From: Catellatospora coxensis
Lineage (GTDB): Bacteria > Actinomycetota > Actinomycetes > Mycobacteriales > Micromonosporaceae
Direction: 5' to 3'
Length of the DNA: 64,000 nucleotides
Assembly (NCBI RefSeq): GCF_016862635.1
Contig: NZ_BONI01000015.1
Span: 62,001 to 126,000, forward strand
The notes beneath the pieces are model-generated. The model was given only the letters and a program-made list of their open reading frames with translations. It searched no databases and had not been told where the DNA came from. Below, in pieces: positions 40,483-55,491 of the stretch. The position numbers were made by a program, and so were the translations under genes. Position 1 is the first letter of the stretch. Every line of letters starts with the position of its first letter.

Positions 40483-41628
40483 TCAGCGCAGACCCAGGTC
40501 CCGCGCGATGACCATGCGCTGGATCTCGGAGGTGCCTTCGCCGATCTCCAGGATCTTGCTGTCGCGCCACATGCGGGCGACCGGGAACTCGTTCATGAAG
40601 CCGTACCCGCCGTGGATCTGCGTGGCGTCCCGGGCGTTGTCCACCGCGACCGTGCTGGCGTGCAGCTTCGCGATGGCCGCCTGGCGCTTGAAGTCCACGC
40701 CCGCGACCAGCCGCTGCGCGGCGTCGCGCCAGGCCAGCCGCGCGGTGTGGGCACGCGTCTCCATGTCCGCGATCATGAACTGGATCGCCTGGTACGAGCC
40801 GATGGTGTGGCCGAACGCCTCGCGCTGCGACGCGTACTTGAGCGACTCGTCGACGCAGCCCTGGGCCAGGCCCGTGGACAGCGCGGCGATGGCGATCCGG
40901 CCCTCGTCGAGGATCTGCAGGAACTGCGCGAAGCCCCGGCCCCGCTGCCCGAGCAGGTTCTCCACCGGCACCCGGCAGTCGGTGAAGGTCAGCTCGTGAG
41001 TGTCCGAGCTGCACCAGCCGACCTTGGAGTAGCCGGGCGCGACCGTGAAGCCGGGCGTGCCCGACGGCACGATGATCGAGGAGATCTCGTTGTCGCCGGT
41101 CCGCGCGGTGACGGTGACCAGGCTGGTCATCGTGGTGCCCGAATTCGTGATGAAGGCCTTGCTGCCGTTGATGATCCATTCGGTGCCGTCCTCGGACAGC
41201 CGCGCCGTGGTGCGCGTGCCGCCCGCGTCCGAGCCCGCGCCCGGCTCGGTCAGCCCGAACCCGGCCAGCGCCTCCCCCTTGATCAGGGCAGGCAGCCAGC
41301 GCTTCTTCTGCTCGTCGCTGCCGAACCGGTAGATCGGCATCGCGCCCAGCGAGATCGCCGCCTCCAGCGTGATGGACAGCGACGAGTCGACCCGGGCCAA
41401 CTCCTCCAGCACGATGCACAGGGCGAGGTAGTCGCCGTCCATGCCGCCGAACTCGCTCGGGAAGGGCAGCCCGAACAGCCCCATCTCGCCCATCTGGCGG
41501 ACCAGGTCGTACGGGAACTCGTGCCGCTCGTACAGGTCGCCGATCACCGGCGCCACCTTGTCCTGGGCGAAGCGGCGCACGGTGTCGCGCAGCTCGCGGT
41601 GCTCCTCGGACAGCCCGAAGTCGGTCAT
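40483..41628 (-). CDS. Acyl-CoA dehydrogenase
   Basis: 381 residues from the ATG at 41626-41628. FAD/substrate motifs are GFGLTEPGAGSDAGGT (about 130-145), INGSKAFITNSG and DSKILEIGEGTSEIQR near the C-terminus. Glu364 in GEGTSE is at the position of the catalytic base in medium/short-chain enzymes, whereas isovaleryl-CoA dehydrogenases have a neutral residue there. Context (carboxyltransferase 11 bases upstream, HMG-CoA lyase and biotin carboxylase nearby) points to branched-chain acyl-CoA oxidation, like FadE19 in M. tuberculosis. It is probably controlled by the operator at 43190-43203. Confidence 0.93.
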   Translation of the reverse strand: MTDFGLSEEHRELRDTVRRFAQDKVAPVIGDLYERHEFPYDLVRQMGEMGLFGLPFPSEFGGMDGDYLALCIVLEELARVDSSLSITLEAAISLGAMPIYRFGSDEQKKRWLPALIKGEALAGFGLTEPGAGSDAGGTRTTARLSEDGTEWIINGSKAFITNSGTTMTSLVTVTARTGDNEISSIIVPSGTPGFTVAPGYSKVGWCSSDTHELTFTDCRVPVENLLGQRGRGFAQFLQILDEGRIAIAALSTGLAQGCVDESLKYASQREAFGHTIGSYQAIQFMIADMETRAHTARLAWRDAAQRLVAGVDFKRQAAIAKLHASTVAVDNARDATQIHGGYGFMNEFPVARMWRDSKILEIGEGTSEIQRMVIARDLGLR

Positions 41629-41639
41629 CACGGCCTCTC

Positions 41640-43160
41640 TCAAACGGGAGTCACGCCGTGTCGGCGGCGTGAGAAGTGACGGTCCTTGCCCTGTGCGGCG
41701 CGGTACCGCTGGATGAGCTCGTCGCGGAGCCGGTCGGGCTCCACGATCGTGTCGATGACCAGCTCGCTGGCGAGCCGGACGATGTCGATGTCGGTCTCGT
41801 ACTCGGCCCGCTTGGCGGCGACGAACGCCTCCCGCTCGGCCTCGTCCTCGATCGCGGCGATCTTGTTGGCGTAGACGGCGTTCACCGCGGCCTCGGCGCC
41901 CATCACGGCGATCTTGGCGGTGGGCAGCGCGATGGTCGCCTCGGGCATGAACCCGGGCCCGGCCATCGCGTACAGGCCGGCGCCGTACGCCTTGCGCACC
42001 ACGACGCAGATCTTCGGCACGGTCGCCTCGCTGATCGCGGAGACCATCTTCGCGCCGTGCCGGATGATGCCCTGCTTCTCGACCGCGCTGCCGACCATGA
42101 AGCCCGGCACGTCGCACAGGAACAGCAGCGGCACGTTGAACGCGTCGCACAGCTGCACGAAGCGGCTGGCCTTGTCGGCCGAGTCGACGAACAGCACCCC
42201 ACCCTTGTGCAACGAGTTGTTGCCCACGATGCCCACGACCTGGCCGTCGAGCCGGCCGAAGCCGATCGTCAGCTCCTTGGCCCAGCGCGCCTGGATCTCG
42301 AAGTACTCCCCGCCGTCGAGCAGGCCCTTGACCAGCTTGCGCATGTCGAACGCGCGGCGCTCGCTCTCGGGCACGATCGCGGCCAGGTCGGTCTCCGGCG
42401 CGGGCATCGGCTCCAGCGCGGGCGGCTGCTCGGTCCAGTTGGCGGGCAGGAAGGACAGGTAGCGCCGGACCACGCCGAGCGCCTCATCCTCGTCCTTGCA
42501 CAGGAAGTGGCCGACGCCGGACTGCTCGGTGTGCACCTTCGCGCCGCCCATCGCCTCCAGCGTGGTCTTCTCCCCGGTGACCATCTCGACCATGCGGTCC
42601 GAGCCCAGGTACATCGAGGCGTTGCCGTCGACCATGGCGACCACGTCGCAGAAGGCGGGGATGTACGCGCCGCCCGCGGCGCTCGGCCCGAACAGGGCGC
42701 ACACCTGCGGGATGCTGCCCGAGGACTTCACCTGCTGGTAGAAGATGTTGCCCGCGCCCCGGCGGCCGGGGAACAGGTCGACCTGGTCGGTGATCCGCGC
42801 CCCGGCGGAGTCGACGAGGTAGACCATGGGCACGCCCTGGCCGTACGCCCGCTCGATGATCCTGATGATCTTCTCGACGGTGCGGGCGCCCCAGCTGCCG
42901 GCCTTGACCGTGGAGTCGTTGGCCATCAGGCACACCGGGCGGCCGTCGATGGTCGCCTGACCGGTGATCACGCCGTCGGCGGGCAGCCCGTGGGCCTGCG
43001 CGTTGGCGAAGATCCCGTCCTCGACGAACGAGCCCTTGTCGACCAGGCGCGCGATGCGCTCGCGCGCGAAGAGCTTGCCCTTGGCCTCGTTGGCGTGGTG
43101 GTACTTCGGCGCCCCACCGGCCCCGATGCGCTCTCTCAGCTCATCCAGCCCCTCGTGCAT
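41640..43160 (-). CDS. Acyl-CoA carboxylase β subunit (methylcrotonyl-CoA carboxylase-like carboxyltransferase)
   Basis: 506 residues from the ATG at 43158-43160. The carboxyltransferase fold is clear: KLFARERIARLVDKGSF, VDSAGARITDQVDLFPGRRG, GPSAAGGAYIPAF, GNNSLHKGGVLFVDSADKA and the C-terminal VRKAYGAGLYAMAGPGF. It should transfer CO2 from carboxybiotin to an acyl-CoA; clustering with HMG-CoA lyase suggests 3-methylcrotonyl-CoA in leucine breakdown. The partner biotin carboxylase is encoded 7 kb away at 50471-51808. A TetR-type operator lies 30 bases upstream of the start. Confidence 0.93.
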   Translation of the reverse strand: MHEGLDELRERIGAGGAPKYHHANEAKGKLFARERIARLVDKGSFVEDGIFANAQAHGLPADGVITGQATIDGRPVCLMANDSTVKAGSWGARTVEKIIRIIERAYGQGVPMVYLVDSAGARITDQVDLFPGRRGAGNIFYQQVKSSGSIPQVCALFGPSAAGGAYIPAFCDVVAMVDGNASMYLGSDRMVEMVTGEKTTLEAMGGAKVHTEQSGVGHFLCKDEDEALGVVRRYLSFLPANWTEQPPALEPMPAPETDLAAIVPESERRAFDMRKLVKGLLDGGEYFEIQARWAKELTIGFGRLDGQVVGIVGNNSLHKGGVLFVDSADKASRFVQLCDAFNVPLLFLCDVPGFMVGSAVEKQGIIRHGAKMVSAISEATVPKICVVVRKAYGAGLYAMAGPGFMPEATIALPTAKIAVMGAEAAVNAVYANKIAAIEDEAEREAFVAAKRAEYETDIDIVRLASELVIDTIVEPDRLRDELIQRYRAAQGKDRHFSRRRHGVTPV

Positions 43161-43189
43161 ACCGACGCCTCTCCTCCCACAGCGCAACC

Positions 43190-43203
43190 TGAACGATAGT
43201 TAA
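43190..43203. promoter_or_regulatory. Candidate TetR operator upstream of the carboxyltransferase gene
   Basis: TGAACGATAGTTAA, which on the minus strand reads TTAACT-AT-CGTTCA. It matches the shared pattern TNAACG-NN-CGTTNA with one departure and overlaps TATCGT, a -10-like hexamer. It is 30 bases before the ATG. Three sister sites are at 47013, 51849 and 52616. Confidence 0.6.
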
Positions 43204-43252
43204 GTTACCACCAGCTGAGACAACCCACCTCCCCCGACCGCCCCACCCCCCG

Positions 43253-43317
43253 CCGCAACTCTTAAGAAGTCGCGGCCTCAGGCACGTTCGAAAGCGGCAA
43301 GTCTTTAAGAGTTGCGG
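43253..43317. repeat. Palindrome, copy 3 of the GCAACTCTT family
   Basis: Left arm 43253-43276 and right arm 43294-43317 begin and end with CCGCAACTCTT and AAGAGTTGCGG. The inner part has five mismatches, so this copy is decayed relative to 3162-3224. It lies between the chaplin-like gene and the carboxyltransferase gene. Confidence 0.8.
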
Positions 43318-43332
43318 CAGGTGGGGGTACGC

Positions 43333-43366
43333 GAAAGGGCCGGCGCGCGTCCGCGCCGGCCCTTTC
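43333..43366 (-). terminator. Terminator of the chaplin-like gene
   Basis: The 15-base arms 43333-43347 and 43352-43366 (GAAAGGGCCGGCGCG and inverse) are perfect with a four-base loop, 16 bases beyond the leftward stop. The outer AAA/TTT adds a short U-tract. Confidence 0.8.
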
Positions 43367-43381
43367 AGTGGGGAAGATGTG

Positions 43382-44272
43382 TCAGCAGAAGTTGGCGGTG
43401 GAGCCGCCGACGCTGGAGGCGTTGGCGTTGCCCAGGAGCGCGCCCACGGCCACGCCCGACACGTCGATCGGGGCCTGGACCGGCACGAACACCTGGTTGC
43501 CGCTCAGGATCCCCGAGTTGGCGAAGGTGTTCCAGTTCAGCTCGCAGGTGCTCGGCGCGGCGTGCTGCCACTTCTTGCGCTGGTTCAGCTGCTGCTTCAT
43601 CTGCTGCTGCTGGGCGCCGATGCCGACGCTGGCGCTGGTGTTGCCGACCGCGCTGGTCAGGCCGCTGGTCAGCCCGTTGATCGGCAGCAGGCCGGTGATC
43701 ATGTCCAGCGGGGAGTTCTCCGTCACGCCGCTCTCGATCGGAGCCGCCGTGGACACGAAGTCCTTCTTCTTGTTCTTGTGCTTGTGCCAGTTCGGCTCGC
43801 CGTAGGGCTGCGGGTACGGGTTCTCGTTGCCGTCTTCACCGGGCTCGCCGGGCAGATTGGCCGCCGACCCGCCGACGCACCACGCGTTGGCGTTGCCGAG
43901 CACCCCGACGCCCACGCCGCAGGCGTCGATCGGGACCTGGATCGGAGCCAGCACCTGGTTGCCGCTCAGGATCCCCGAGTTGCCGAGGCTGCTCCAGTCG
44001 GTGGCGAGCGCGTCCTCGCCGTAGTTGGCCTCGCTGCCGCCGGTGCAGCTGGCGTTGGCGTTGCCCAGGATGCCGATGGCGATCCCGCAGATGTTGATCG
44101 GGGCCTGCACCGGCAGCTTGATCTGGTTGCCGCTGCCGATACCGCTGTTGAAGGAAGAGTTCCAGTTGTCGGCCGCGTGCGCGCCCGTACCGCCGATGAG
44201 CAGCACGCCGGCGGACAGGACGCCGACCTTCACGGACGTCTTGGTCCACGTGCCCAGCGAAGTCGCAGTCAT
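43382..44272 (-). CDS. Chaplin-like secreted protein with three repeats
   Basis: 296 residues from the ATG at 44270-44272. A signal peptide ends at AHA (31-33). Three related units (about 37-83, 93-138, 246-296) share NSGI-x-SGNQ-x5-PVQAPI-x-x-CG and a LGNANA-x-C segment, close to the chaplin pattern of two spaced cysteines in a hydrophobic Gly/Val/Asn-rich unit. Cysteines 62/76 and 118/132 form pairs; the third unit has Ser at both positions but the protein gains Cys243 and a terminal Cys296. A Gln/Lys-rich linker separates units 2 and 3. Chaplins form amyloid surface layers on aerial cells. No LAXTG signal is seen. Confidence 0.82.
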   Translation of the reverse strand: MTATSLGTWTKTSVKVGVLSAGVLLIGGTGAHAADNWNSSFNSGIGSGNQIKLPVQAPINICGIAIGILGNANASCTGGSEANYGEDALATDWSSLGNSGILSGNQVLAPIQVPIDACGVGVGVLGNANAWCVGGSAANLPGEPGEDGNENPYPQPYGEPNWHKHKNKKKDFVSTAAPIESGVTENSPLDMITGLLPINGLTSGLTSAVGNTSASVGIGAQQQQMKQQLNQRKKWQHAAPSTCELNWNTFANSGILSGNQVFVPVQAPIDVSGVAVGALLGNANASSVGGSTANFC

Positions 44273-44595
44273 GTGAATCGCAGTGCCTTTCGATCTGGAA
44301 TTGCCACGGGGAGATGCAGTGTCTTGCCATGTCACGGCCGCTTTGCGGAGCGTCCTGTGTGCACGATGAGCGCACCGGAGCGCGGTTGCCCCGGCTGTCG
44401 ACGCGCGCCCGTAGTCACCTGATTCGGCTCGTACAAATAGGGCATTTATGACATCGCAGGGGTCAACGAGCTTGCCATTCCTCGGACACGGATGGCCGAC
44501 CCGATCACCTAGGGCGGCAAATGCCATTCGTTGCACGAATTACGGCTTATGTCCGAATTGCTCCGCCTTCAAAACGCAGCAATGGTCAGATAGCC

Positions 44596-44626
44596 GACAG
44601 GGAGTGACCGACGGTCACTCCCTGTC
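44596..44626 (-). terminator. Terminator after the sigma-partner gene
   Basis: GACAGGGAGTGAC (44596-44608) and GTCACTCCCTGTC (44614-44626) form a perfect 13-bp stem around CGACG. It begins 20 bases beyond the stop at 44647. Between here and the chaplin start (44273-44595) lies the chaplin upstream region; I cannot assign a promoter with confidence. Confidence 0.8.
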
Positions 44627-44646
44627 ATTGTTGGCGCGGCCCGATT

Positions 44647-45501
44647 TCAGCAGGCCGTGGTGGCCGCGCAGATACGTGCCACCGCCTTGTCCGCGAGGTC
44701 CTGGGCGAGCGCGACGTCCGCCGCACCGGGCGTGGCCGGGAACGTGAGAGAGAGCTCGGTGTACACCGCACCTACTCGTACCAGCACCAGCAGCGTGCGA
44801 GGGCTCATCCGGACCAGCAACGCCTCGTCGCCGGCGAATCCCGTTGCGATGATCTCGAACTCGACGTGGGTCTCCCGGTGGTCCAGGACCGCGCAGTGCT
44901 CGAATCCGGCCCGTTCGTGGGCGATCAGCTCCCCGGCCGAGCGGGCCGACCCGTAGCCGGTCACCTGCTGCACGACGTGCACCGCGTCCTGACCGGCCGC
45001 CAGCACCCGCTGCCGGGACGAATCCCGCGCCCCGGACAGCTGCGGCCGGACAGGCTTGCCGTCCCACTGGCCCTTCTCCTGGCACAACCCGGTGACGTAC
45101 CGGTAGTTCTCGCCCAGGTACTCGCCCCCCTGCACCCGGTGCGCGGGGCTGACGTCGGCGGCCCGGAGCATGGCGTCCAGCGGGATCACCGTGTCGAAAG
45201 GCACCGCGGGGCTCGGCGAGGTCAGCCTCGGCCGGACCGAGGGCGACGGGCTCAGCTGCGGCACCACGGTGATCGACGGGCGGGCCGTCAGGGTGGGCGC
45301 GGGCTCCCCGGGCCGGCCGCCGAGCACGAACGCGGCACCGGCGACGACGGCGAGGGCCGCCACACCGGCGGCGGTCATGCCCACCGTACGCACGCGGCGT
45401 CGGCGCTCCCCCCGGCCGCGGATCTCTGCGGGTGAGGCCCAGGTCGTCGCCGGCATGTCTGCTCCGAACCCGTCGAGCTGCTGGGAGATGTCGTCACGCA
45501 T
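44647..45501 (-). CDS. Single-pass membrane protein paired with ECF sigma factor (probable anti-sigma)
   Basis: 284 residues from the ATG at 45499-45501, overlapping the sigma gene end by eight bases. A cytoplasmic N-terminal segment (about 1-38) with an Arg cluster leads to a membrane helix (about 42-62, MTAAGVAALAVVAGAAFVLGG). A Pro/Ser/Thr linker and an outer domain of about 180 residues with several cysteines follow. No zinc-binding anti-sigma motif is seen. Coupled translation with a SigE-type factor suggests it controls that factor. Two similar pairs occur at 55785-57087 and 60314-61980. Confidence 0.75.
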   Translation of the reverse strand: MRDDISQQLDGFGADMPATTWASPAEIRGRGERRRRVRTVGMTAAGVAALAVVAGAAFVLGGRPGEPAPTLTARPSITVVPQLSPSPSVRPRLTSPSPAVPFDTVIPLDAMLRAADVSPAHRVQGGEYLGENYRYVTGLCQEKGQWDGKPVRPQLSGARDSSRQRVLAAGQDAVHVVQQVTGYGSARSAGELIAHERAGFEHCAVLDHRETHVEFEIIATGFAGDEALLVRMSPRTLLVLVRVGAVYTELSLTFPATPGAADVALAQDLADKAVARICAATTAC

Positions 45502-45985
45502 AGCTGTTCCCCGTCTCGGTGCTGAGCAGGTGGGCGAGGGCCTGCCGGCCCCGGGAGAGACGCGCCTTGACCGTGCCCTCGGCGACCCCGGTCTCGGCCG
45601 CGATCTCGGCGACCGACCGGCCCGCGATGTGGTGCAGCACGATCGCGGTGCGCTGCGCCTCGGGGATGCCGCGCAGCGCGGCAACCAGCGCGACGGTGTT
45701 CTCGTCGGGCGGGGCCGCGCTCGGCTCGCCGCCGTGCCGGCGGTGCGCGGTGAACATGCTGCGGGCCCGCCGCCAGCGGCTCACCGCGATGCGGAAGGCC
45801 ACGGTGCGCACCCACGCCTCGGGATCGTCGTACGCGGCGACCTTGCGCCAGTTCTGCCAGGCCCGCGCGTAGGCCTCCTGCACGACATCCTGTGCTTCCT
45901 GCACGTCACCGGTGACGGCGTACGCACAGCGCAGCATCCGCTGCCTGCTGCCCAGATAGAACTCGTCGAACACGGGTGGTGACAT
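45494..45985 (-). CDS. ECF (SigE-type) RNA polymerase sigma factor
   Basis: 163 residues. Region 2 (about 8-75) includes GDVQEAQDVVQEAYARAWQNW and EAWVRTVAFRIAVSRWRR. Region 4 (about 100-155) includes LRGIPEAQRTAIVLHHIAGR and GVAEGTVKARLSRGRQAL. Size and motifs fit SigE/SigM-like ECF factors that respond to envelope stress. It is the first gene of a two-gene unit with the membrane partner. Confidence 0.93.
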   Translation of the reverse strand: MSPPVFDEFYLGSRQRMLRCAYAVTGDVQEAQDVVQEAYARAWQNWRKVAAYDDPEAWVRTVAFRIAVSRWRRARSMFTAHRRHGGEPSAAPPDENTVALVAALRGIPEAQRTAIVLHHIAGRSVAEIAAETGVAEGTVKARLSRGRQALAHLLSTETGNSYA

Positions 45986-46088
45986 CCAGGGCTCCCCCGG
46001 TGGTGGGTGTCAGGTCACCCACAAGTCACGCGCGCACCCGGCGGCCGGTTGCGTACGAACTTCGGACCGCGCCGCGGCGCCGGACCGG

Positions 46089-47003
46089 TCAGCTCACGGT
46101 GCGGCTGCGCGGGCCGGCCCGCAGCACGCCGGACGGCAGCTCGCGGCCGACGATCTGCTCGGCGAGCCGGGCCGCGTCGATCAGCTTCTCCAGGTCGATC
46201 CCGGTGTCGATGCCCATGTCGTGCAGCATGTGCACGACCTCCTCGGTGGCCACGTTGCCCGACGCGCCCGGCGCGTACGGGCAGCCGCCCAGGCCGCCGA
46301 CGCTGGCGTCGTACTCGGTGATGCCGAACTCCAGCGCGGTGAGGATGTTGGCGAGACCGGTGCCGCGGGTGTTGTGGAAGTGCAGCAGCATCGGCACGTC
46401 CGGGTGCCGCTCGCGGACGATCGACAGCAGCTCGCGGACCCGGCGCGGGGTGCCCATGCCGGTGGTGTCGCCGAAGGCCACCCGGTCCGCCCCGTCGGCG
46501 ACGACGCGGTCGACGATGGCGGCCACCCGCTTCGGATCCACGTCCCCCTCGTACGGGCATCCGAAGCTCGTCGCGATGATCACCTCGGCGGTCGAGCCGC
46601 CCTCGTGCAGCGCCGGGATGAGCTGGGCGATCTCGTCCAGCGACTCCTCGGTGGCCCGGTTGATGTTGCGGCGGTTGTGCGTGTCGCTGGCCGAGACCAC
46701 CACCTCGACCTCGGTGAAGCCGCCGGCCAGGGCCCGCTGGGCGCCGCGCAGGTTGGGCACCAGCGCGCTGTAGCGCACCTTCGGGTCGCGCGCGGCCGTG
46801 CTCCAGACCTCGTCGGCGTCGGCCATCTGCGGAATGGCCTTGGGGTGCACGTATGACACCGCCTCGATGCGGCCGACGCCGGTGGCGCTCAGCGCGTCGA
46901 TCAGCCTGACCTTGTCGGCGGTGGGCACGGGGTCCTCGTTCTGCAGCCCGTCACGCGGGCCCACCTCACGAATCGACACCCGGTCCGGCAGCACAGCACC
47001 CAT
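46089..47003 (-). CDS. hmgL: Hydroxymethylglutaryl-CoA lyase
   Basis: 304 residues. The TIM-barrel lyase has the N-terminal VSIREVGPRDGLQNE with the metal/catalytic Arg-Asp, LHFHNTRGTG and the active-site loop signature GGLGGCPYAPGASGNVATE containing the conserved Cys. It cleaves HMG-CoA to acetyl-CoA and acetoacetate, the last step of leucine breakdown. The ATG at 47001-47003 lies six bases after TAAGGT (minus strand), so the transcript may be leaderless; a weak AAGGTGG is also present. The operator at 47013-47026 overlaps this -10. Confidence 0.95.
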   Translation of the reverse strand: MGAVLPDRVSIREVGPRDGLQNEDPVPTADKVRLIDALSATGVGRIEAVSYVHPKAIPQMADADEVWSTAARDPKVRYSALVPNLRGAQRALAGGFTEVEVVVSASDTHNRRNINRATEESLDEIAQLIPALHEGGSTAEVIIATSFGCPYEGDVDPKRVAAIVDRVVADGADRVAFGDTTGMGTPRRVRELLSIVRERHPDVPMLLHFHNTRGTGLANILTALEFGITEYDASVGGLGGCPYAPGASGNVATEEVVHMLHDMGIDTGIDLEKLIDAARLAEQIVGRELPSGVLRAGPRSRTVS

Positions 47004-47012
47004 GCCGCCACC

Positions 47013-47026
47013 TTAACCCTCGTTAA
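47013..47026. promoter_or_regulatory. Candidate TetR operator upstream of hmgL
   Basis: TTAACCCTCGTTAA; on the minus strand TTAACG-AG-GGTTAA. It overlaps the -10-like TAAGGT of hmgL (47010-47015, minus strand). It also lies in the 178-base region shared with the divergent subtilase gene. Confidence 0.65.
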
Positions 47027-47181
47027 CCTCAGCTGCCCACCCCTCCCCTGGCCTGGCTGTTCGCCATACCTTCACAAGGATTTGAGGTATTCACTCATGT
47101 CTCTGCCCAACGCATCCCCCCTTCGACGCGTCTCTACGAACGACAGTCCAAGGCGGACTGATCGAACGGACGGGGAGGAAC

Positions 47182-50100
47182 ATGCGATCCAGCAGAGGAA
47201 CGAGGGCAATGCTGGCCGGGGGGATCGTCGCCGCGCTACTGATGGCCGCGCCCGGCACCGCGGGCGCGGAACAGGCCGCCTCACCACTGGCCGCCAGACC
47301 CGCACCGGGCAACACGAAGACGCAGACCGTCGCGCTGATCACCGGCGACCGGGTATCGGTGCACGGTGACGGCCGGCTCAGCCTGACGCCGCGGGACGGG
47401 GTGACCTACCGCAGCTACCGGGTCAAGGACCACCAGTACGTCATCCCGTCCGACGCCGTCGCGCTGCTCGCGGCGAACCGCCTGGACAAGCGGCTGTTCG
47501 ACATCACCGAGCTGCTCGCCGTCAAGGCCGCGCGCAAGGCCGCGCTGCCGCTCATCGTCTCCGGTGCGACCTACGCGCCGGGCCTGACCGCCGAGCGCCG
47601 GCTGCCCGCGGTGAAGGGCTTCGCCGCCGAGGTGCCGGAGGAGTCCCTGGCCGCGCAGTGGCAGGCGACCCGCAAGGCGAGCACCGGCAAGATCTGGCTC
47701 GACGCCGTACGCAAGCCGGCGCTGGACCAGAGCGTCCCGCTGATCGGCGCGCCCGCGGCCTGGTCCGCCGGGTTCGACGGCACGGGTGTGAAGGTCGCCG
47801 TGCTCGACACCGGCGTCGACATCTCCCACCCCGACCTGGCTGGCAAGATCAGCGCCCGGCAGAACTTCACCGAGGGTGAGGAGGACGACCTCGACCGGGT
47901 CGGTCACGGCACGCACGTCGCCTCGACCATCGCGGGCAGCGGGGCCGGCTCCGGCGGCAAGTACAAGGGTGTCGCGCCCGGTGCTTCGCTGCTCGACGGC
48001 AAGGTCTGCGTCGAGTACGGCTGTGCCGAGTCCTGGATCCTGGCCGGTATGCAGTGGGCCGCGGAGTCCGGGGCCGACGTGGCCAACATGAGCCTCGGCG
48101 GCACCAACACCCCGGAGGTCGACCCGCTGGAGCAGGCCGTCAACGACCTGACCGCGCAGTACGGCACGCTGTTCGTGATCGCGGCGGGCAACGCCGGGTC
48201 GGACGAGAGCGTCGGCTCGCCGGCGACCGCCGAGGCGGCGCTGGCCGTCGGGGCGTTCACCAAGACCGACGAGCTGGCCGTGTTCTCCAGCCGGGGCCCC
48301 AGCGCCGACGGCTGGGCGGTCAAGCCGGAGATCGCCGCGCCCGGTCAGGAGATCGTGGCCGCACGCAGCAAGGACGGCTTCCTCGGCGAGCCGGGTCAGC
48401 TGTACATGCCGCTGGACGGCACGTCGATGGCCACCCCGCACGTCGCGGGCGCGGCCGCGCTGCTGACCCAGGTGCACCCGGGGTGGACCGCGGCGCAGCG
48501 CAAGGCCGCGCTGATGGCCTCGGCGAAGCCGTCCGCCGACATCGGCGTGTTCGCGCAGGGCGCGGGCCGCGTCGACGTGGCTCGGGCGATCACCCAGCAG
48601 GTGACGACCAGCCCCACGGCGGTCACGTTCGGCCTGCAGGAGTGGCCGCACGAGGACGACGAGGTGCGCACCAGCACCGTCACGTACCACAACGGCGGCA
48701 GTGCCGCGGTGACCCTGCAGCTCGCCCTCACCGGCGCGCCCGCCGGGATCTTCGCGCTGGGCGCCGACTCCGTCACGGTGCCGGCCGGGGGCGACGCCTC
48801 GGTGACCATCACGGCCGACACCCGCCAGGGTGGCGACCTCACCGGCGGTGTCGGCGGCCGCATCACCGCGACCGCGGACGGCGTCTCCGTGCAGACCCCG
48901 TTCGGCATCGTCCGGGAGGAGCTCAAGCACGCGGTCAAGGTCACCGCGACCGAGCGGGACGGCGACCCGGCCGAGAACGCGCTGACCGTGCTGTTCGACC
49001 TCGAGAACTTCCGGGACTACGTGGTGTCCGGGGCGAGCGGCGAGCTGCGCCTGCCGCCGGGCAAGTACTTCGCGTTCAGCTGGGTCGACGAGGTCGACGG
49101 CGACGACTACTCCACCACGCAGCTGGTGTACCCGCTCTACACCGTCGGCGGCGCGCAGACGCTGGCGATGGACGCGCGGGGCGCCGGCAACTTCGACGTC
49201 ACCGTGCCCGACCCGAAGGCCGACGTGCTGCTGGCGGCGCTCGACGTCAGCATGAGCTACCAGGACGCCGGCATCAGCGTCGGCGTGCTGGCCGAGAAGT
49301 TCGGCAACATGTACGCCAAGCAGCTCGGCCCGAAGAAGGTGCCCGGCCTCACCTCGGCGCTCACCGGCACGCTGGCCGAGCTCGGCGAGGAGGGTGACCC
49401 GGCGCTGTCGCCGTACTCCTACAACCTCGGCTGGCACAAGGCCGACGGCATGATGGCCGGGCTGACCAAGCACCTGCGCTGGGCCGACCTCGCCAAGGTC
49501 GAGTCCGGGCACGGGCTGCTCGACAAGGGCACCAACGGCGTGAAGCTCAACTTCATCGCGCCGCCCGGCGGTGGCGGCGGCTGGGCGACCGGCTGGCCGA
49601 CCCCGCTGCCCTACCAGCGGACCGACTACTACACCACCAGCACGCCGTGGTCGGTCGAGTTCATGGTGGAGAAGCCGGCCGAGGGCGAGGACTGGCCGGA
49701 GACGGTGTCCGACAACGCGGCCGTGGTGACCTACCGGGCCGGCAAGACCTACCGGGAGCAGTGGAACAAGGGTGTGTTCGGGCCCAGCGTGGCACCGCTC
49801 TTCCCGGGTGACCAGGCGGCCGTGCGCGAGGGCGACCTCATGTTCGTCGGTCCCGCGCTGCTCGGCGACGGGCAGGGCCGGGCCGGCTTCGGGCAGATCA
49901 CCGGCGGCCGGGGCGCGCTCTACCGCAACGGCGAGCTGATCGCCGAGGCGGCGGACGGGCCGTACGTGTTCGTCGAGGAGGTGGACCCGGCCAAGGCCTC
50001 GTTCCGCTTCGACGGCAGCCTGGAGCGCGACTCCCGGCTCACCACGAAGATGTCGGTGAGCTGGACGTTCCGTTCGGGCCACGCGGACAAACCGGCCTCG

Positions 50101-50415
50101 CTGCCGCTGACCGCGGTCAGTTTCGCGCCGAAGCTGGACGCGAACAACGTCGGCAAGGCCGGCGGCCTGGGCGTCTACCCGGCGACCTTCACCCAGACCG
50201 AGGGCTCCGGCCGCGTGGTCAAGCTGGTGGTGAAGGCGTCGTACGACGACGGCAAGACCTGGGTCAAGGTGCCGGTGCTGTGCGTCGGCGGCGAATGGGT
50301 GGTCATGGTGGCGCACCCGAAGGCGGGCGGCTTCGTGTCGCTGCAGGCTTCGGGCGCGGACTCGAAGGGCAACACCTTCGACCAGACCGTGATCCGGGCG
50401 TACGAGATCCGCTGA
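47182..50415 (+). CDS. Secreted S8 family (subtilisin-like) serine peptidase
   Basis: 1077 residues with GGGAGGAA before the ATG. A signal peptide ends near AGA (about residue 29), followed by a propeptide to about 180. The catalytic triad is Asp209 (VAVLDTGVDISHPDL), His242 (GHGTHVAST) and Ser415 (GTSMATPHVAG), with the oxyanion Asn337 (AAGNAG). The C-terminal 600 residues contain β-rich domains without clear motifs, as in large actinobacterial S8 peptidases. It should degrade extracellular protein. It sits between hmgL and the biotin carboxylase on the opposite strand, splitting the leucine set, which could reflect co-use of protein-derived leucine or mere insertion. Confidence 0.93.
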   Translation: MRSSRGTRAMLAGGIVAALLMAAPGTAGAEQAASPLAARPAPGNTKTQTVALITGDRVSVHGDGRLSLTPRDGVTYRSYRVKDHQYVIPSDAVALLAANRLDKRLFDITELLAVKAARKAALPLIVSGATYAPGLTAERRLPAVKGFAAEVPEESLAAQWQATRKASTGKIWLDAVRKPALDQSVPLIGAPAAWSAGFDGTGVKVAVLDTGVDISHPDLAGKISARQNFTEGEEDDLDRVGHGTHVASTIAGSGAGSGGKYKGVAPGASLLDGKVCVEYGCAESWILAGMQWAAESGADVANMSLGGTNTPEVDPLEQAVNDLTAQYGTLFVIAAGNAGSDESVGSPATAEAALAVGAFTKTDELAVFSSRGPSADGWAVKPEIAAPGQEIVAARSKDGFLGEPGQLYMPLDGTSMATPHVAGAAALLTQVHPGWTAAQRKAALMASAKPSADIGVFAQGAGRVDVARAITQQVTTSPTAVTFGLQEWPHEDDEVRTSTVTYHNGGSAAVTLQLALTGAPAGIFALGADSVTVPAGGDASVTITADTRQGGDLTGGVGGRITATADGVSVQTPFGIVREELKHAVKVTATERDGDPAENALTVLFDLENFRDYVVSGASGELRLPPGKYFAFSWVDEVDGDDYSTTQLVYPLYTVGGAQTLAMDARGAGNFDVTVPDPKADVLLAALDVSMSYQDAGISVGVLAEKFGNMYAKQLGPKKVPGLTSALTGTLAELGEEGDPALSPYSYNLGWHKADGMMAGLTKHLRWADLAKVESGHGLLDKGTNGVKLNFIAPPGGGGGWATGWPTPLPYQRTDYYTTSTPWSVEFMVEKPAEGEDWPETVSDNAAVVTYRAGKTYREQWNKGVFGPSVAPLFPGDQAAVREGDLMFVGPALLGDGQGRAGFGQITGGRGALYRNGELIAEAADGPYVFVEEVDPAKASFRFDGSLERDSRLTTKMSVSWTFRSGHADKPASLPLTAVSFAPKLDANNVGKAGGLGVYPATFTQTEGSGRVVKLVVKASYDDGKTWVKVPVLCVGGEWVVMVAHPKAGGFVSLQASGADSKGNTFDQTVIRAYEIR

Positions 50416-50424
50416 TCAGGTGAC

Positions 50425-50460
50425 GAAGGGGCCTGGCGACCACGGTCGCCGGGCCCCTTC
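50425..50460. terminator. Bidirectional terminator between subtilase and biotin carboxylase genes
   Basis: Arms GAAGGGGCCTGGCGACC (50425-50441) and 50444-50460 pair with one mismatch and a two-base gap. It lies between convergent stops at 50415 and 50471. Confidence 0.75.
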
Positions 50461-50470
50461 CCATGTCCGG

Positions 50471-51808
50471 TCAGCGCATCCGCGAGACCAGGCCGGTGTC
50501 GTAGTCGCCCGAGACGAACTCGGCGTTGTCCATCAGCTCGGCGAAGAACGGCAGGTTGTTCTTCGGCCCGATCAGCTCGAACGCGGCGACCGCCGCCTTG
50601 GCCCGGACGATGGCCTCGGCCCGGTCGGCCCCGTACACGATGACCTTGGCCATCAGCGAGTCGTAGCTCGGGGTGACGACGTTGCCCTCGGCGTAGCCGG
50701 AGTCCACCCGCACGCCGTCGCCGGTCGGCTCGATCCAGGTCTTGATCGCACCGGGGCCGGGCAGGAAGCGCTTCGGGTCCTCGGCGTTGATCCGCAGCTC
50801 GATGGCGTGGCCCTGGGACGCCAGCGTGGACGGCTCGAACTGCACCGGCAGGCCGGCAGCGACGCGCAGCTGCGCCTCGACCAGGTCGAGGCCGAAGACC
50901 AGCTCGGTGACCGGGTGCTCGACCTGCAGCCGGGTGTTCATCTCCAGGAAGAAGAAGTCGCCGGTGGCCGGGTCGAACAGGCACTCGACGGTGCCGGCGT
51001 TGCGGTAGCCGACAGCCTCGCCCGCGCGGACCGCGGCGGCCAGCAGCTTCTCGCGCTGCGCGGGGGTGAGCGCCGGGGACGGCGACTCCTCGACCAGCTT
51101 CTGGTTGCGCCGCTGCACCGAGCACTCCCGCTCACCGAGGGCGAGCACGGTGCCGTCGGCCAGGCCGAGGATCTGCACCTCGACGTGGCGTACCCGGGGA
51201 AAGTAGCGCTCCAGCAGCACGGAGCCGTCGCCGAACATGCGCTCGGCGAAGCCACGCACCTGCTCGTACTGCGCGGTCAGCTGGGCGGCGTCGTTCGCGA
51301 CGGCCATGCCCATGCCGCCGCCGCCGGCCGCGGCCTTGACCATGACCGGGTAGCCGATCTCCTCGGCGGCGGCCAGCGCGGCCTCGACGGTCGCGGCCGG
51401 GTCGGCGGTGCCCGGGGCGACCGGCACTCCGGCGGCGGCCATCAGGTTACGTGCGTTGATCTTGTCGCCCATCGCGGTGATCGCGTCGGGACCGGGCCCC
51501 ACCCAGATCAGGCCGCTGTCCACGACGGTACGGGCGAAGTCGGCGTTCTCGGAGAGGAAGCCGTAGCCGGGGTGGATCGCCTGCGCCCCGGTCTGCTTCG
51601 CGGCGGCGAGGATCGCCTCGGCATTGCGGTAGGACTCGGCCGGGTTGGCCGGTCCGACGCACACCGCCTCGTCGGCCTCGCGCACGAACGGCAGCTCGGC
51701 GTCGGCCTCGGAGTACACCGCGATGGTCCGGATCCCCAGGCCCCTGGCGGTGCGGATGATGCGCCGGGCGATCTCCCCCCGGTTCGCGACCAGCAACGAC
51801 TCGATCAT
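50471..51808 (-). CDS. Biotin carboxylase subunit, without a carrier domain
   Basis: 445 residues. It begins with the biotin carboxylase N-lobe LLVANRGEIARRIIRTARGLG, then the ATP-grasp loop KAAAGGGGMGM, ERYFPRVRHVEVQILG, FLEMNTRLQVEHPVTE and the C-terminal SYDSLMAKVIVYG. It ends at LVSRMR, directly after the biotin carboxylase C-domain; no BCCP domain or AMKM motif is present, although the α subunits that serve such carboxyltransferases are usually about 600-670 residues with BCCP. A separate carrier must be used. The operator at 51849-51862 is 41 bases upstream. Confidence 0.93.
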   Translation of the reverse strand: MIESLLVANRGEIARRIIRTARGLGIRTIAVYSEADAELPFVREADEAVCVGPANPAESYRNAEAILAAAKQTGAQAIHPGYGFLSENADFARTVVDSGLIWVGPGPDAITAMGDKINARNLMAAAGVPVAPGTADPAATVEAALAAAEEIGYPVMVKAAAGGGGMGMAVANDAAQLTAQYEQVRGFAERMFGDGSVLLERYFPRVRHVEVQILGLADGTVLALGERECSVQRRNQKLVEESPSPALTPAQREKLLAAAVRAGEAVGYRNAGTVECLFDPATGDFFFLEMNTRLQVEHPVTELVFGLDLVEAQLRVAAGLPVQFEPSTLASQGHAIELRINAEDPKRFLPGPGAIKTWIEPTGDGVRVDSGYAEGNVVTPSYDSLMAKVIVYGADRAEAIVRAKAAVAAFELIGPKNNLPFFAELMDNAEFVSGDYDTGLVSRMR

Positions 51809-51848
51809 GCCCGCGTCCCTCCTACGCTCCAGACAACCACACCGAGCC

Positions 51849-51862
51849 TAAACGCACGTTAA
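51849..51862. promoter_or_regulatory. Candidate TetR operator upstream of the biotin carboxylase gene
   Basis: TAAACGCACGTTAA; on the minus strand TTAACG-TG-CGTTTA, identical to the site before tetR except for one spacer base. It overlaps TAGGCT, a -10-like hexamer pointing at the gene. Confidence 0.75.
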
Positions 51863-51911
51863 GTTCCACGCACCCACTGGGGCCGCCGCACCGCGCAGAC
51901 CAGCGGTTTCG

Positions 51912-51964
51912 GGGAAACTGCGGTTTCCGGGCACGCCGAAGGCGCAGTTTCCCGGAAACTGCGG
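51912..51964. repeat. Hairpin-forming repeats of GGAAACTGCG
   Basis: GGGAAACTGCG (51912-51922) pairs with CGCAGTTTCCC (51943-51953), and a further GGAAACTGCGG follows at 51954-51964. It lies between the tetR stop and the biotin carboxylase promoter, so it may end the tetR transcript. Confidence 0.55.
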
Positions 51965-51979
51965 AACGGGCGGGGCGGG

Positions 51980-52591
51980 TCAGCCCAGGAGGGCGGCCAG
52001 GGCGGCGGCGCGGAGGAGGGTGGCGCGGCGCTGGCGTTCGACCTCGCCGCCGAGGAAGGGGGTGGAGTTCATGAGGCCGAAGGCGGCGTGGGCGAGCACG
52101 CGGGCCTCGCCGCCGGTGACGTCGCTGCGCACCGAGGTCAGCACCTGGACCCACTCCTCGACGTACTGGCGCTGCAGGCGGCGGATCTCCCGGCGGGGCT
52201 CCTCGGGCAGGCGGTCCAGCTCGTGCAGGTGCAGGGCGATCACGGCGGGGTTGGCCAGCGCGAACTCGACGTGGAAGTCGACCAGGGCCTCGACCGCGGC
52301 GCGCGGGTCGCCGGGGTGCGCGGAGACCTGACCGCGGCCGCCCGCCAAAAGGCCCTCGCTCACCGGCATCAGCGCGGCGACGAGCATCGCCTCCTTGCCG
52401 GCGAAGTGGTGGTAGAGGGCGGGCCCGGTGACACCGGCCGCGGTGCCGATGTCGTCCATGGACACGCCGTGATAGCCGCGCGCCGCGAACAGTCCGACGG
52501 CGATCTCGAGGATCTCCTCACGTCGCGACCTGCGCGCCGGCTTCGCTGGGGGGGTGTCTACCTGCTGCTCCACTGCCGTCACCCGAGACAT
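51980..52591 (-). CDS. TetR-family transcriptional regulator (BkaR-like candidate)
   Basis: 203 residues. The N-terminal helix-turn-helix (about 22-70) reads REEILEIAVGLFAARGYHGVSMDDI then GVTGPALYHHFAGKEAML, typical of TetR. The helical C-terminal ligand domain is unassigned. The gene is next to the acyl-CoA carboxylase/HMG-CoA lyase set and is preceded by the same palindrome as the other three units. In M. tuberculosis a TetR regulator, BkaR, sits beside accA1-accD1-fadE19 and controls branched-chain keto-acid metabolism; orthology is inferred from context. It is probably a self-repressor released by an acyl-CoA intermediate. Confidence 0.9.
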   Translation of the reverse strand: MSRVTAVEQQVDTPPAKPARRSRREEILEIAVGLFAARGYHGVSMDDIGTAAGVTGPALYHHFAGKEAMLVAALMPVSEGLLAGGRGQVSAHPGDPRAAVEALVDFHVEFALANPAVIALHLHELDRLPEEPRREIRRLQRQYVEEWVQVLTSVRSDVTGGEARVLAHAAFGLMNSTPFLGGEVERQRRATLLRAAALAALLG

Positions 52592-52615
52592 GCTACTCGC
52601 CGGTCAAGCCGCAGC

Positions 52616-52629
52616 TTAACGTCCGTTTA
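52616..52629. promoter_or_regulatory. Candidate TetR operator upstream of tetR
   Basis: TTAACG-TC-CGTTTA, 25 bases before the tetR ATG. It contains the stop codon of the TPR gene (52627-52629) and overlaps TAAGCT on the minus strand, a -10-like hexamer. It differs from the site before the biotin carboxylase gene in a single spacer base. Confidence 0.75.
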
Positions 52630-55491
52630 GTCCAGTTCAAACCCATATTCCCCGGCCAGCTGGCGGGCTTCCTCGCCCCGGCCGCACTGCATCAGCGCGT
52701 GGGCGAGCGCGTACGCCGCCCGCGGCAGCGTCGCCGAGTCCCGGGGCAGGCCGTTGAGCACCTCCCGCAGCAGCCGCTCGGCCTCCTCGGCCCGGCCCAG
52801 CGTCAGCAGCACCTCGCCCATGGTCAGGTCGGCCAGGAACGCCTCCCCGAACGCCTCCAGCCCCCGGAACCGCTCGGCCGCGCCGCGCACCCGGGCCAGC
52901 GCCGCCTCCGGATGACCCGCGCCGACCATGGCGCGCGCCCCGTCCAGGGCGAGCCAGGCCAGCTCGTACTGCGCCTCCGGCTCCTTGGCCAGCCCCGGCG
53001 GCAGCTCCGCCGCCGCGGCGTCGGCCAGCTCCACCGCCTGGCGGGCCCGCTCCGGGTCGTCGGCGTACATCGCGGCCACGGCCTGCCGGCGCCGGGCGCG
53101 CATCTCGTCGAGCGGCAGCCGCGCCATCCGGTACGCGGCGGCGGCCGAGCCGAGCCTGGTCGCCGCGAGCGCGTCACGATCGAGGTCGAACAGCAGCTCA
53201 CCGGCCTGTTCCAGGACCCGCGCCCGCCCCGCGGCGTTGTCGAACCCGTCCAGGTTCGCCGCGAGCTGATCGAGGTAGGACAGCGCCTGGTCGGTCTCCC
53301 CCAGCCGCTGGTAGATCGCGGCCAGCAGGTGGCGTACCTGGTCGGCGAGGTTCTGGTTGCCGGCCCGGTCCGCGCCGTGCACCGCCTCCTCGGCGACCTC
53401 GGCGGCCTCCTCCACCCGGCCGGTGTTGAACAGCGCCACGGACAGGTGGAAGCGGGCGTGCTCGGCGTCGTCGCCCTGCTCCTCCCCCGCCTCGGGCTCG
53501 CCGGCGATCCGGGCGACCATGGCGACCAGGTCGTCGACCGCCTCCCGGGCCCGCGGCGTGCCCGCCAGCAGGACGGCCCGCCGCTCGCGGACCTCGCGCT
53601 CCAGCGGCTCGGGCAGCGCCCGGGCCAGCGCCCGGTCGAACGCCGCCGCCGCGCCCGCGTTGTCGTCGAGCATGCTCAGGCCCTGGCCGAGGAAGAACTC
53701 GCCCAGCCCGATCAGCTCGTCCTGATCCTCGGCGACGGCCTGCTCGATCAGATCCCGGGCCGCGGCCACGGACTCCTGCACCCGACCGTCCGCGCCCAGC
53801 GCCTGCGCCCGCAGCAGCATGACCTGCAGCCGCACCCGCGCACCCGGGTCGGGCTCGCCGACCCCGGCGATCCGGTCCAGCTCGCGCAGCGCCTCGCCCG
53901 GCTGCTGGGCGTGCAGCAGCGCGACCGCGAGCCGGCGCAGCGCCCCGGCCTGGTCCTTCGGCCCGCCGTGCGCCAGCAGGTAGTCCGAGGAGGCACGGAC
54001 CTGCGCCAGGCCCTCCTCCGGCTGGCCGTGCCGGCTGCGGTGCAGCCCCAGCCGGCCCCGGATCCGCTGGCAGCGCACCTCGTCCCCGGCCGCGGTGTAC
54101 CGCTCCAGCGCCTCGGTCCAGGCGTGCTCGGTCTGCTCGGCCGTCTCGCCGTGCAGCCGCATGCCGCGCAGGTCGGCGAGCCGCCCCTGCTGCAGCGCGG
54201 TCAGCCCGGCCGCGCCGGTGAACGGCTCGATGAGCTGCCACAGCGCCTCCGAGCGGGGCTCGTCGTCACACCGCAGCGCCTCCTCGATCAGGTCGAGCAG
54301 CAGGTCCAGGCCGGCGTCCGCGGGCACGTCCGGCAGACCCGCCACCACCGGCGGGGCCGCGGCCGCGGGCGTACGCCGCACCGCCGCGCCCACCCGCGCG
54401 GTCAGGCTCAACGGCAGCCGCTCCGCCGGCGGCTCGGCCGCCAGCAGCGCCGCCACCCGGGCGCTCTGCGCGAGCGTGCCGTTGCGGGCGTCGAAGCTCT
54501 TCGCCAGCGCGCCGGCCCGCTCCGCGAGGTGCTCGGCCAGCTCCGCGATGCTCTGCTCCGTGCCGTACACCGGCTGCGCCCCCTGCCCGGTGGCGGCCAG
54601 CAGCCGCAGCACCAGCGCGGCCGCGGCGGCGAACTCCAGCTCGACCATCGGCGAGGACGCCTCGGCCAGCCAGGGCAGATGCCGCTCGACCAGTTCCAGC
54701 CCGCGTACGGCGTTGCCGCTCACCCCGAGGAAGTACACGTGCTCGGCGATCGTGCCGAGTTTGCCGTGGTCACCTCGGATGGTGCGGTAGGCCTGGTGGT
54801 GCGCCTTGCGCGCCTCGTCGAACCGGCCCGTACGCAGGTACGGCAGCAGCAGCGCGGTGAGGATCTCCTGCGGCTGCTCGGCGCAGGTCAGCCGTCCCGC
54901 CAGCACCGGCGCGGTGAGCTCGATGGCCTCCGCGTCACGGCCGCGCTCCGTCAGGTGCCGCACCTGGTCGGTCGGGTCGCACCCGACGCAGTCCGAGTTG
55001 CCGTCGCGCGGGGCCGCCACCCACCGCTCGTAGTGCAGGTCGGCGGCAGCGCGGTCACCCAGGTGGAAGGCCAGCAGCCAGCGGTGCTTGTGCACGGCCT
55101 GCAGGCTGTGCCCGCCCTCCTCGAAGCGGCGCTGCATGTCGTCGAGCACCGCGTACGTCCGGGCGAGCGGCACGTCCGGGAAGCGGGTCGCCGCGTTGAT
55201 CACGTACTTGTAGTGCCAGAGCAGCAGGTATTCCTGGTCCCCGTACCGTTCCGGATAGGAGTCGAAGCGGGCCAGGCACCAGGAGAACGTCACGAACCCC
55301 TCGGCCGGCCGGCCGGCGCGCTGATACGCCTCCGTGGCCGCCATCCGGGCGTGGAACCGCAGCGGCTCGTCACCGAGCGCGTCCGCCTGGGCGATCGCCT
55401 CCTCGGCCAGCGCCACCTGACCCGCACCTCGGGGGGCGTCCCAGCACTGCTCGATCAGCGCGCGGATCCGGTCGGGGTTGGGGTTGCTCAT
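52627..55491 (-). CDS. Large TPR-repeat protein
   Basis: 954 residues, almost wholly α-helical with TPR-like pairs, for example ALRELDRIAGVGEPDPGARV and AIYQRLGETDQALSYLDQLA. There is no membrane segment, helix-turn-helix or P-loop, so it is probably a cytoplasmic scaffold. A CVGCDP motif near residue 170 is the only cysteine cluster. Its stop codon is within the tetR operator. It begins MSNPNPDRIRALIEQCWD after a GAGGAG-type site. Function unknown. Confidence 0.85.
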   Translation of the reverse strand: MSNPNPDRIRALIEQCWDAPRGAGQVALAEEAIAQADALGDEPLRFHARMAATEAYQRAGRPAEGFVTFSWCLARFDSYPERYGDQEYLLLWHYKYVINAATRFPDVPLARTYAVLDDMQRRFEEGGHSLQAVHKHRWLLAFHLGDRAAADLHYERWVAAPRDGNSDCVGCDPTDQVRHLTERGRDAEAIELTAPVLAGRLTCAEQPQEILTALLLPYLRTGRFDEARKAHHQAYRTIRGDHGKLGTIAEHVYFLGVSGNAVRGLELVERHLPWLAEASSPMVELEFAAAAALVLRLLAATGQGAQPVYGTEQSIAELAEHLAERAGALAKSFDARNGTLAQSARVAALLAAEPPAERLPLSLTARVGAAVRRTPAAAAPPVVAGLPDVPADAGLDLLLDLIEEALRCDDEPRSEALWQLIEPFTGAAGLTALQQGRLADLRGMRLHGETAEQTEHAWTEALERYTAAGDEVRCQRIRGRLGLHRSRHGQPEEGLAQVRASSDYLLAHGGPKDQAGALRRLAVALLHAQQPGEALRELDRIAGVGEPDPGARVRLQVMLLRAQALGADGRVQESVAAARDLIEQAVAEDQDELIGLGEFFLGQGLSMLDDNAGAAAAFDRALARALPEPLEREVRERRAVLLAGTPRAREAVDDLVAMVARIAGEPEAGEEQGDDAEHARFHLSVALFNTGRVEEAAEVAEEAVHGADRAGNQNLADQVRHLLAAIYQRLGETDQALSYLDQLAANLDGFDNAAGRARVLEQAGELLFDLDRDALAATRLGSAAAAYRMARLPLDEMRARRRQAVAAMYADDPERARQAVELADAAAAELPPGLAKEPEAQYELAWLALDGARAMVGAGHPEAALARVRGAAERFRGLEAFGEAFLADLTMGEVLLTLGRAEEAERLLREVLNGLPRDSATLPRAAYALAHALMQCGRGEEARQLAGEYGFELD

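What the first reader, a model, noticed from the sequence alone, without database searches (positions are those of the whole stretch)
43190..52629. Four matching palindromes mark a local TetR regulon for branched-chain acyl-CoA catabolism
Sites at 43190-43203, 47013-47026, 51849-51862 and 52616-52629 share TNAACG-NN-CGTTNA. Two of them differ in only one spacer base. Each is 10-41 bases upstream of a different leftward unit (carboxyltransferase + acyl-CoA dehydrogenase, hmgL, biotin carboxylase, tetR) and overlaps a TANNNT hexamer. This is seen directly. That the adjacent TetR protein (51980-52591) binds them, and that it is a BkaR counterpart, is inference from gene content.
Basis: partly seen in the sequence, partly recalled or inferred. 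Interest (0 to 1): 0.78.

Follow-up and report, generated by a model that had tools for sequence, protein, structure and literature searches.

The report
Acyl-CoA repressor's conserved DNA operators
Four matching short palindromes in a soil actinobacterium are most likely the docking sites of a known kind of repressor that senses breakdown products of leucine and related fuels, here with a slightly re-lettered docking sequence and a control area that seems to reach genes elsewhere in the genome.

Summary
The four palindromes are real. Across 80 named Micromonosporaceae loci a near-identical 16-mer (CTNAACGNNCGTTNAG, at most one mismatch) precedes accD in 69 of 69 testable loci, against 0 of 69 inside the gene.

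The adjacent TetR is the ortholog of the AccR/BkaR kind: the best of 17 compared own-genome TetRs for 17 of 17 readable TetRs, most of them acc-linked, from other families. Those families have GTTA...TAAC operators. In the window's family the outer pair is mostly C...G and the recognition helix reads YHH instead of YRH/YKH. This supports direct binding but is a single evolutionary event.

'Local' is too narrow: the palindrome precedes unlinked acyl-CoA and branched-chain genes at 12 of 26 loci with a downstream gene, against 1 of 16 for a control pattern. Three such targets are partly conserved in relatives.

The kind of regulator is known (AccR of Streptomyces, BkaR of mycobacteria). The re-lettered operator, the apparently wider regulon and a replaced carboxylase module make it a new variant. 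No binding or expression data exist here.

The parts
43189..43204 (-). operator before accD-fadE; on the - strand CTTAACTATCGTTCAG; overlaps TAACTT (43207-43202)
   Evidence: counterpart within one mismatch of CTNAACGNNCGTTNAG in 69 of 69 testable named loci
47012..47027 (-). operator before hmgL; on the - strand GTTAACGAGGGTTAAG; followed by ATG after 9 bases, so the transcript may be leaderless (inference)
   Evidence: within two mismatches in 11 of 71 testable loci
51848..51863 (-). operator before accA; on the - strand CTTAACGTGCGTTTAG
   Evidence: within two mismatches in 21 of 78 testable loci
52615..52630 (-). operator before tetR; on the - strand CTAAACGGACGTTAAG; contains the stop codon of the upstream gene 52627-55491
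   Evidence: within two mismatches in 29 of 80 testable loci
51980..52591 (-). TetR regulator, 203 aa, ortholog of AccR/BkaR
50471..51808 (-). accA: bare biotin carboxylase, 445 aa, no biotin-carrier domain
46089..47003 (-). hmgL: hydroxymethylglutaryl-CoA lyase
   Evidence: NF004283, 364.9 bits, cut-off 246
41640..43160 (-). accD: acyl-CoA carboxyltransferase, probably of methylcrotonyl-CoA carboxylase (substrate inferred from neighbours)
40483..41628 (-). fadE: acyl-CoA dehydrogenase, probably isovaleryl-CoA dehydrogenase (inferred); starts 11 bases after accD, so probably one transcript
   Evidence: own operator in only 1 of 67 testable loci

Best explanation
The TetR protein is the Micromonosporaceae ortholog of AccR/BkaR. 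As a dimer it binds the 16-bp palindrome CTNAACGNNCGTTNAG at its own promoter and at those of accA, hmgL and accD-fadE (leucine catabolism). It covers or abuts the -10 region and represses; a short-chain acyl-CoA, perhaps 3-methylcrotonyl-CoA or propionyl-CoA, releases it. It most likely also controls unlinked genes of branched-chain, propionyl-CoA and beta-oxidation metabolism through the same palindrome. Shown here: the sites, their conservation, the orthology, the operator/helix co-change and the enrichment before acyl-CoA genes. Inferred: binding, repression, ligand, and that this TetR (not another) acts at the unlinked sites. The confidence is for the local part; I put the unlinked part at about 0.6.
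For: Conservation before accD 69 of 69 against 0 of 69 inside the gene. Orthology 17 of 17 and clade support 99/95. accD and/or accA beside the TetR in 17 of 20 loci of other families of the order and 17 of 20 of other orders. Helix YHH in 88 of 88 window-type loci and YRH/YKH in 38 of 38 others; outer pair before tetR C...G in 25 of 29 against G...C in 45 of 47. Unlinked targets 12 of 26 against 1 of 16, partly conserved. BkaR represses the homologous operon and binds as a dimer (PMC3920632, passages); AccR ligands methylcrotonyl-, propionyl- and acetyl-CoA (PMC8546615, passage).
Against: No binding or expression data. The operator is found before tetR in only 29 of 80, accA in 21 of 78 and hmgL in 11 of 71 loci, so autoregulation and separate control of accA and hmgL are not general. 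The helix/operator change happened once on the tree. The whole genome has 51 one-mismatch matches against 33 for the control pattern, so many single sites must be chance. EtfB sites are absent in 3 of 6 family genomes and thiolase sites in 2 of 7.
Confidence: 0.86

Rival explanations
1. Two regulators with look-alike sites: the local TetR controls only its own cluster, and another TetR-type fatty-acid regulator binds the mostly TGAACG-type sites before etfB, accA2, thiolase, mutase and others.
For: Unlinked sites are mostly TGAACG...CGTTCA, cluster sites mostly TTAACG. The genome has 37 TetR matches at E 0.001 or better. BkaR in M. smegmatis directly controls only 10 genes (PMC3920632).
Against: Within the family the cluster's own sites also take the TGAACG form (tetR in L106, accD in L106 and L110), and unlinked sites score high with a matrix trained on cluster sites alone, outer C...G included.
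Confidence: 0.3
2. The palindromes are promoter features or operators of an unlinked regulator, and the neighbouring TetR does not bind them.
For: They overlap candidate -10 elements, and no binding test exists.
Against: Dyad symmetry, the same 16-bp register as the published AccR/BkaR operators beside the orthologous TetR, and the co-change of helix and outer base pair.
Confidence: 0.06
3. Chance similarity of four AT-rich palindromes.
For: Two of the four deviate from the stated pattern; genome-wide the one-mismatch excess over control is modest, 51 against 33.
Against: 0 of 100 shuffles reach four; accD conservation 69 of 69.
Confidence: 0.01

Closest known systems
AccR of Streptomyces avermitilis (seen through passages of PMC10933834, PMC11596240, PMC8176718 and PMC8546615; the original paper is not held)
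   Same: TetR repressor of accD1A1-hmgL-fadE4 plus unlinked echA8, echA9 and fadE2, with a 16-nt palindrome GTTAA-N6-TTAAC; acyl-CoA ligands. Six f31 loci here have that gene order and GTTA...TAAC palindromes.
   Different: Here the outer pair is C...G, the helix reads YHH, the genes are co-directional with separate operators, the carboxylase module is of another lineage, and the apparent regulon includes etfB, thiolase, mutase, ccr and ilvE.
BkaR of mycobacteria (PMC3920632, passages)
   Same: Orthologous position beside accD-accA-fadE, autoregulation, dimeric binding to a 16-bp palindrome GTTA(N)T(N4)A(N)TAAC.
   Different: Operator letters, divergent layout and a small regulon (10 genes directly controlled in M. 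smegmatis). 4g12, the best PDB match, is probably BkaR: the L178 TetR matches it at 281 bits; its record gives no locus name.
PccD of Saccharopolyspora erythraea (passages of PMC10933834 and PMC11596240; original not held)
   Same: Described as a BkaR homolog repressing propionyl-CoA carboxylase and branched-chain degradation.
   Different: Its reported operator in PMC10933834 is a different, non-palindromic sequence; not compared directly here.
SACE_7040 family (NF050111)
   Same: Best NCBIfam model for the window TetR, 224 bits.
   Different: Below the curated cut-off of 250; SACE_7040 is described as a morphogenesis repressor (PMC3825060, passages).

Membership tests
AccR/BkaR orthologous group | common descent of the TetR (reciprocal best hit, one clade apart from own-genome paralogs) | tested here: met
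   17 of 17 readable distant TetRs find the window TetR best among 17 compared own-genome TetRs (144-221 bits; next at most 66); clade 99/95
AccR/BkaR orthologous group | gene beside accD/accA/fadE | tested here: met
   window
AccR/BkaR orthologous group | 16-bp palindromic operator at its own and the carboxylase promoter | tested here: met
   window sites; accD 69 of 69, tetR 29 of 80 in relatives
AccR/BkaR orthologous group | published operator letters, outer G...C (descriptive, varies with lineage) | tested here: not met
   outer pair mostly C...G in the window's family
AccR/BkaR orthologous group | tetR divergent from accD (usual layout, not shared by all) | tested here: not met
   co-directional in the window and named family loci; divergent in 15 of 16 order loci that have accD, L182 the exception
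AccR/BkaR orthologous group | repression relieved by short-chain acyl-CoA | not testable with these tools
   needs bench work
SACE_7040 family NF050111 | score over the curated cut-off of 250 bits | tested here: not met
   224.2 bits, 224.7 bits

The most novel reading that the evidence does not exclude
In Micromonosporaceae the AccR/BkaR ortholog has become a genome-wide acyl-CoA regulator with a re-specified operator: a recognition-helix change (Arg/Lys versus His) goes with a swapped outer base pair. It would control leucine and branched-chain catabolism, propionyl-CoA carboxylation, beta-oxidation and crotonyl-CoA carboxylase/reductase, possibly also pyruvate kinase, a PPDK-like enzyme and fructose bisphosphatase, and so the precursor supply for polyketides in this antibiotic-rich family, while the carboxylase/lyase module beneath it was exchanged for one of another lineage.
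Probability: 0.5. Interest if true: 0.62.

Novelty: new variant of a known kind. Interest (0 to 1): 0.45.

Why it matters
It gives many genomes of the Micromonospora family, known for antibiotic producers (recalled), a defined operator and a candidate acyl-CoA sensor. It is a clean natural case of an operator and a recognition helix changing together, and of a regulator kept while most enzymes beneath it were exchanged. Loss of AccR is reported to raise avermectin-type yield by 14.5% in Streptomyces (PMC11596240, passage), so the same handle could be tested here.

Tried and rejected
Rejected: (1) My early worry that the half-sites are in the opposite order to AccR's. It was a misreading: GTTAA-N6-TTAAC with N6 = CGNNCG contains TTAACGNNCGTTAA (corrected). 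(2) SACE_7040 as identity: below cut-off. (3) A biotin-carrier gene near the cluster: an [AVS]MK[ML] scan of the window gave two hits, neither looking like a carrier; an [EA][AVS]MK[ML] scan of 80 named loci gave hits in 2, neither looking like a carrier. (4) The C138 carrier gene as a regulon member: best palindrome score there 0.6.

Dropped rows and limits: of 51 one-mismatch genome matches, 4 are the cluster and 1 was not listed, so 46 sites in 45 loci were examined; 26 loci had a qualifying downstream frame and all 33 such frames were scanned with Pfam. Control: 33 sites, 16 loci with a frame, 18 frames, 17 scanned; the 18th is the L008 thiolase and is the one positive. The acyl-CoA category was assigned after seeing the genes; a short-chain dehydrogenase (L153) was left out. 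One search left out 3 of 20 distant TetRs (L184, L185, L197) that my script did not pick up, and compared 16 of the own-genome paralogs (one search lists 37 matches in all, the window TetR included). In one search, 5 of 40 distant loci and 5 of 6 further near loci gave no operator by the loose pattern, 10 of 40. With outer letters free the accD sites of the family gave only 13 matches (7 C...G), because the common CCTAACG form fails that loose pattern. For the mutase many out-of-family best hits are other paralogs (45-53% identity), so absence there means little.

Prior description: (Micromonospora, TetR, branched-chain, acyl-CoA dehydrogenase, palindromic) gave 0 papers; (five operator strings) gave one unrelated soybean paper. 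The original AccR and PccD papers are not held. No AlphaFold or fold-search job was run.

Full report
WHAT WAS CHECKED. The window is contig C15, bases 62001-126000, of a 9.35 Mb genome. Its nearest named relative in the collection is Catellatospora vulcania, TetR 99% identical. Two sites fit TNAACGNNCGTTNA exactly and two with one mismatch; 4 matches against 0.40 expected, 0 of 100 shuffles reaching 4. The start codons lie 29 (accD), 9 (hmgL), 40 (accA) and 24 (tetR) bases away. The genes encode a TetR, a biotin carboxylase, HMG-CoA lyase, a carboxyltransferase and an acyl-CoA dehydrogenase, which together read as leucine catabolism (inference from the set).

CONSERVATION. In 80 named Micromonosporaceae loci the order TetR, AccA, HmgL, AccD, FadE on one strand recurs, with exceptions and truncated contigs. 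The best match to CTNAACGNNCGTTNAG in -150..+30 has at most one mismatch before accD in 69 of 69 testable loci; inside the gene 0 of 69. Within two mismatches it occurs before tetR in 29 of 80, accA in 21 of 78, hmgL in 11 of 71 and fadE in 1 of 67. The accD operator is thus the fixed one and the other three come and go. The commonest accD form is CCTAACGATCGTTCAG (47 of 69).

WHO THE TETR IS. In other families of the order the best TetR hit (44-64% identity) lies beside accD and/or accA in 17 of 20 fetched loci. L191 shows only the dehydrogenase, L181 and L197 none of these genes; tetR is divergent from accD in 15 of the 16 loci with accD, L182 being the exception. In other orders it is so in 17 of 20 (L365 only the dehydrogenase, L360 and L361 none). 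The 17 of 20 order TetRs that my script could read all find the window TetR best among 17 compared own-genome TetRs (144-221 bits; next at most 66), and a tree of 41 sequences puts them in one clade with it (99/95). L178 carries two BkaR-type palindromes, and six f31 loci have the AccR gene order with GTTA...TAAC palindromes. Published operators: BkaR GTTA(N)T(N4)A(N)TAAC (PMC3920632, passages); AccR GTTAA-N6-TTAAC, repressing accD1A1-hmgL-fadE4, echA8, echA9 and fadE2 (PMC10933834, passages).

OPERATOR AND HELIX CHANGE TOGETHER. With outer letters left free, sites before tetR have outer G...C in 45 of 47 in the other families (30 of 40 loci have one) and C...G in 25 of 29 in the window's family. 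The recognition helix reads YHH in 80 of 80 named family loci, 6 of 6 further near loci and 2 of 20 order loci (L196, L197), and YRH or YKH in the other 38. That this residue can contact DNA in TetR proteins is recalled, not tested. It is one change on the tree, so one data point.

NOT ONLY LOCAL. The own genome has 8 exact matches, the reversed control 1; with one mismatch 51 against 33, so single sites need care. Of 46 examined sites outside the cluster (45 loci), 26 loci have a qualifying frame just downstream, and 12 of these encode acyl-CoA or branched-chain enzymes: biotin carboxylase (L004, two sites), ETF (L006), thiolase (L008), carboxyltransferase (L145), branched-chain aminotransferase (L147), CoA-mutase N-terminal part (L148) and B12-binding subunit (L162), thioesterase (L155), crotonyl-CoA carboxylase/reductase (L159; 598.9 bits, cut-off 378.55), 3-hydroxyacyl-CoA dehydrogenase (L160) and acyl-CoA dehydrogenases (L161, L164). 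The control gives 1 of 16, and that one is the same thiolase (Fisher p 0.006; 0.001 without it). Pyruvate kinase (L158), a PPDK-domain protein (L151) and GlpX bisphosphatase (L144) also follow such sites; so do unrelated genes such as a melibiase-type hydrolase and a UDP-sugar dehydrogenase. In six relatives there are 16 exact sites (none in G015); by eye 12 precede tetR or acyl-CoA genes.

A matrix trained only on cluster sites was then applied upstream of three unlinked genes in 30 other genomes. Mutase: a palindrome in 7 of 7 same-family genomes (one weak); none convincing in the 23 others. Thiolase: 5 of 7 in the family, plus G020, G054 and G150 outside. EtfB: 3 of 6 in the family (no hit in G063), plus G020 outside, and weaker ones in G021 and G138.

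MECHANISM. A dimeric TetR on a palindrome that covers or abuts the -10 region would repress sterically. TAgCCT overlaps the 5' edge of the accD operator in the consensus of 69 loci, and a TANNNT lies at the 3' half of the hmgL operator in 11 of 11. The ligand is inferred from AccR, whose ligands are given as methylcrotonyl-, propionyl- and acetyl-CoA (PMC8546615, passage).

A REPLACED MODULE. Between eight sequences of the window's family and up to 14 of other families, FadE is 72% identical (median), as much as among the others themselves (72%). AccD is only 39% (80% among the others), HmgL 43% (68%, five sequences) and AccA 51% (68%). AccA ends with the carboxylase domain in 77 of 78 named loci, while 33 of 34 counterparts elsewhere carry a tail of 174 or more residues with MK[ML]. 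So regulator and dehydrogenase seem to have been kept while carboxylase and lyase came from another lineage. The own genome has one free-standing 71-aa biotinyl protein among 11 Biotin_lipoyl matches, closest in the PDB to the Biotin/Lipoyl Attachment Protein 1z6h (61.5 bits; recalled to be from Bacillus subtilis, where carrier and bare carboxylase lie in one operon).

VERDICT. The kind is known; this is a variant of it.

Noticed in passing
window 50471-51808; L058-L137: The biotin carboxylase lacks a biotin-carrier domain in 77 of 78 named loci, while 33 of 34 counterparts in other families have a long tail with a biotinyl motif; AccD (39%) and HmgL (43%) are also far from the other families although FadE is not. 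This looks like replacement of the carboxylase/lyase module.
   Followed up: partly
L345 1495-1755 (own genome, contig C138): Free-standing 71-aa biotinyl protein, best PDB match 1z6h, a candidate carrier for the bare carboxylase; no palindrome near it.
   Followed up: partly
window 47182-50415 (+): A 1077-aa S8-type protease gene lies on the other strand between accA and hmgL. A gap of about 3.5 kb is there in 5 of 7 Catellatospora loci and absent in L063 and L064 (that the gap holds the protease was seen only in the window).
   Followed up: partly
window 43382-44536 (-): Protein between hmgL and accD with repeated GNxxSGILSGNQ-type stretches, chaplin-like by eye.
   Followed up: no
window 52615-52630: The tetR operator contains the stop codon of the upstream gene (52627-55491), so operator and coding end overlap.
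   Followed up: no
L158 1498, L151 1502, L144 1496 (own genome): The palindrome (at most one mismatch) precedes pyruvate kinase, a PPDK-domain protein and GlpX fructose bisphosphatase, hinting at a switch between glycolysis and gluconeogenesis; conservation was not tested.
   Followed up: no
L146 1509 (own genome): Another TetR gene, divergent from a FAD-binding protein gene, has a similar palindrome GCCAACGATCGTTGAC between them, so other TetRs here may use look-alike operators.
   Followed up: no
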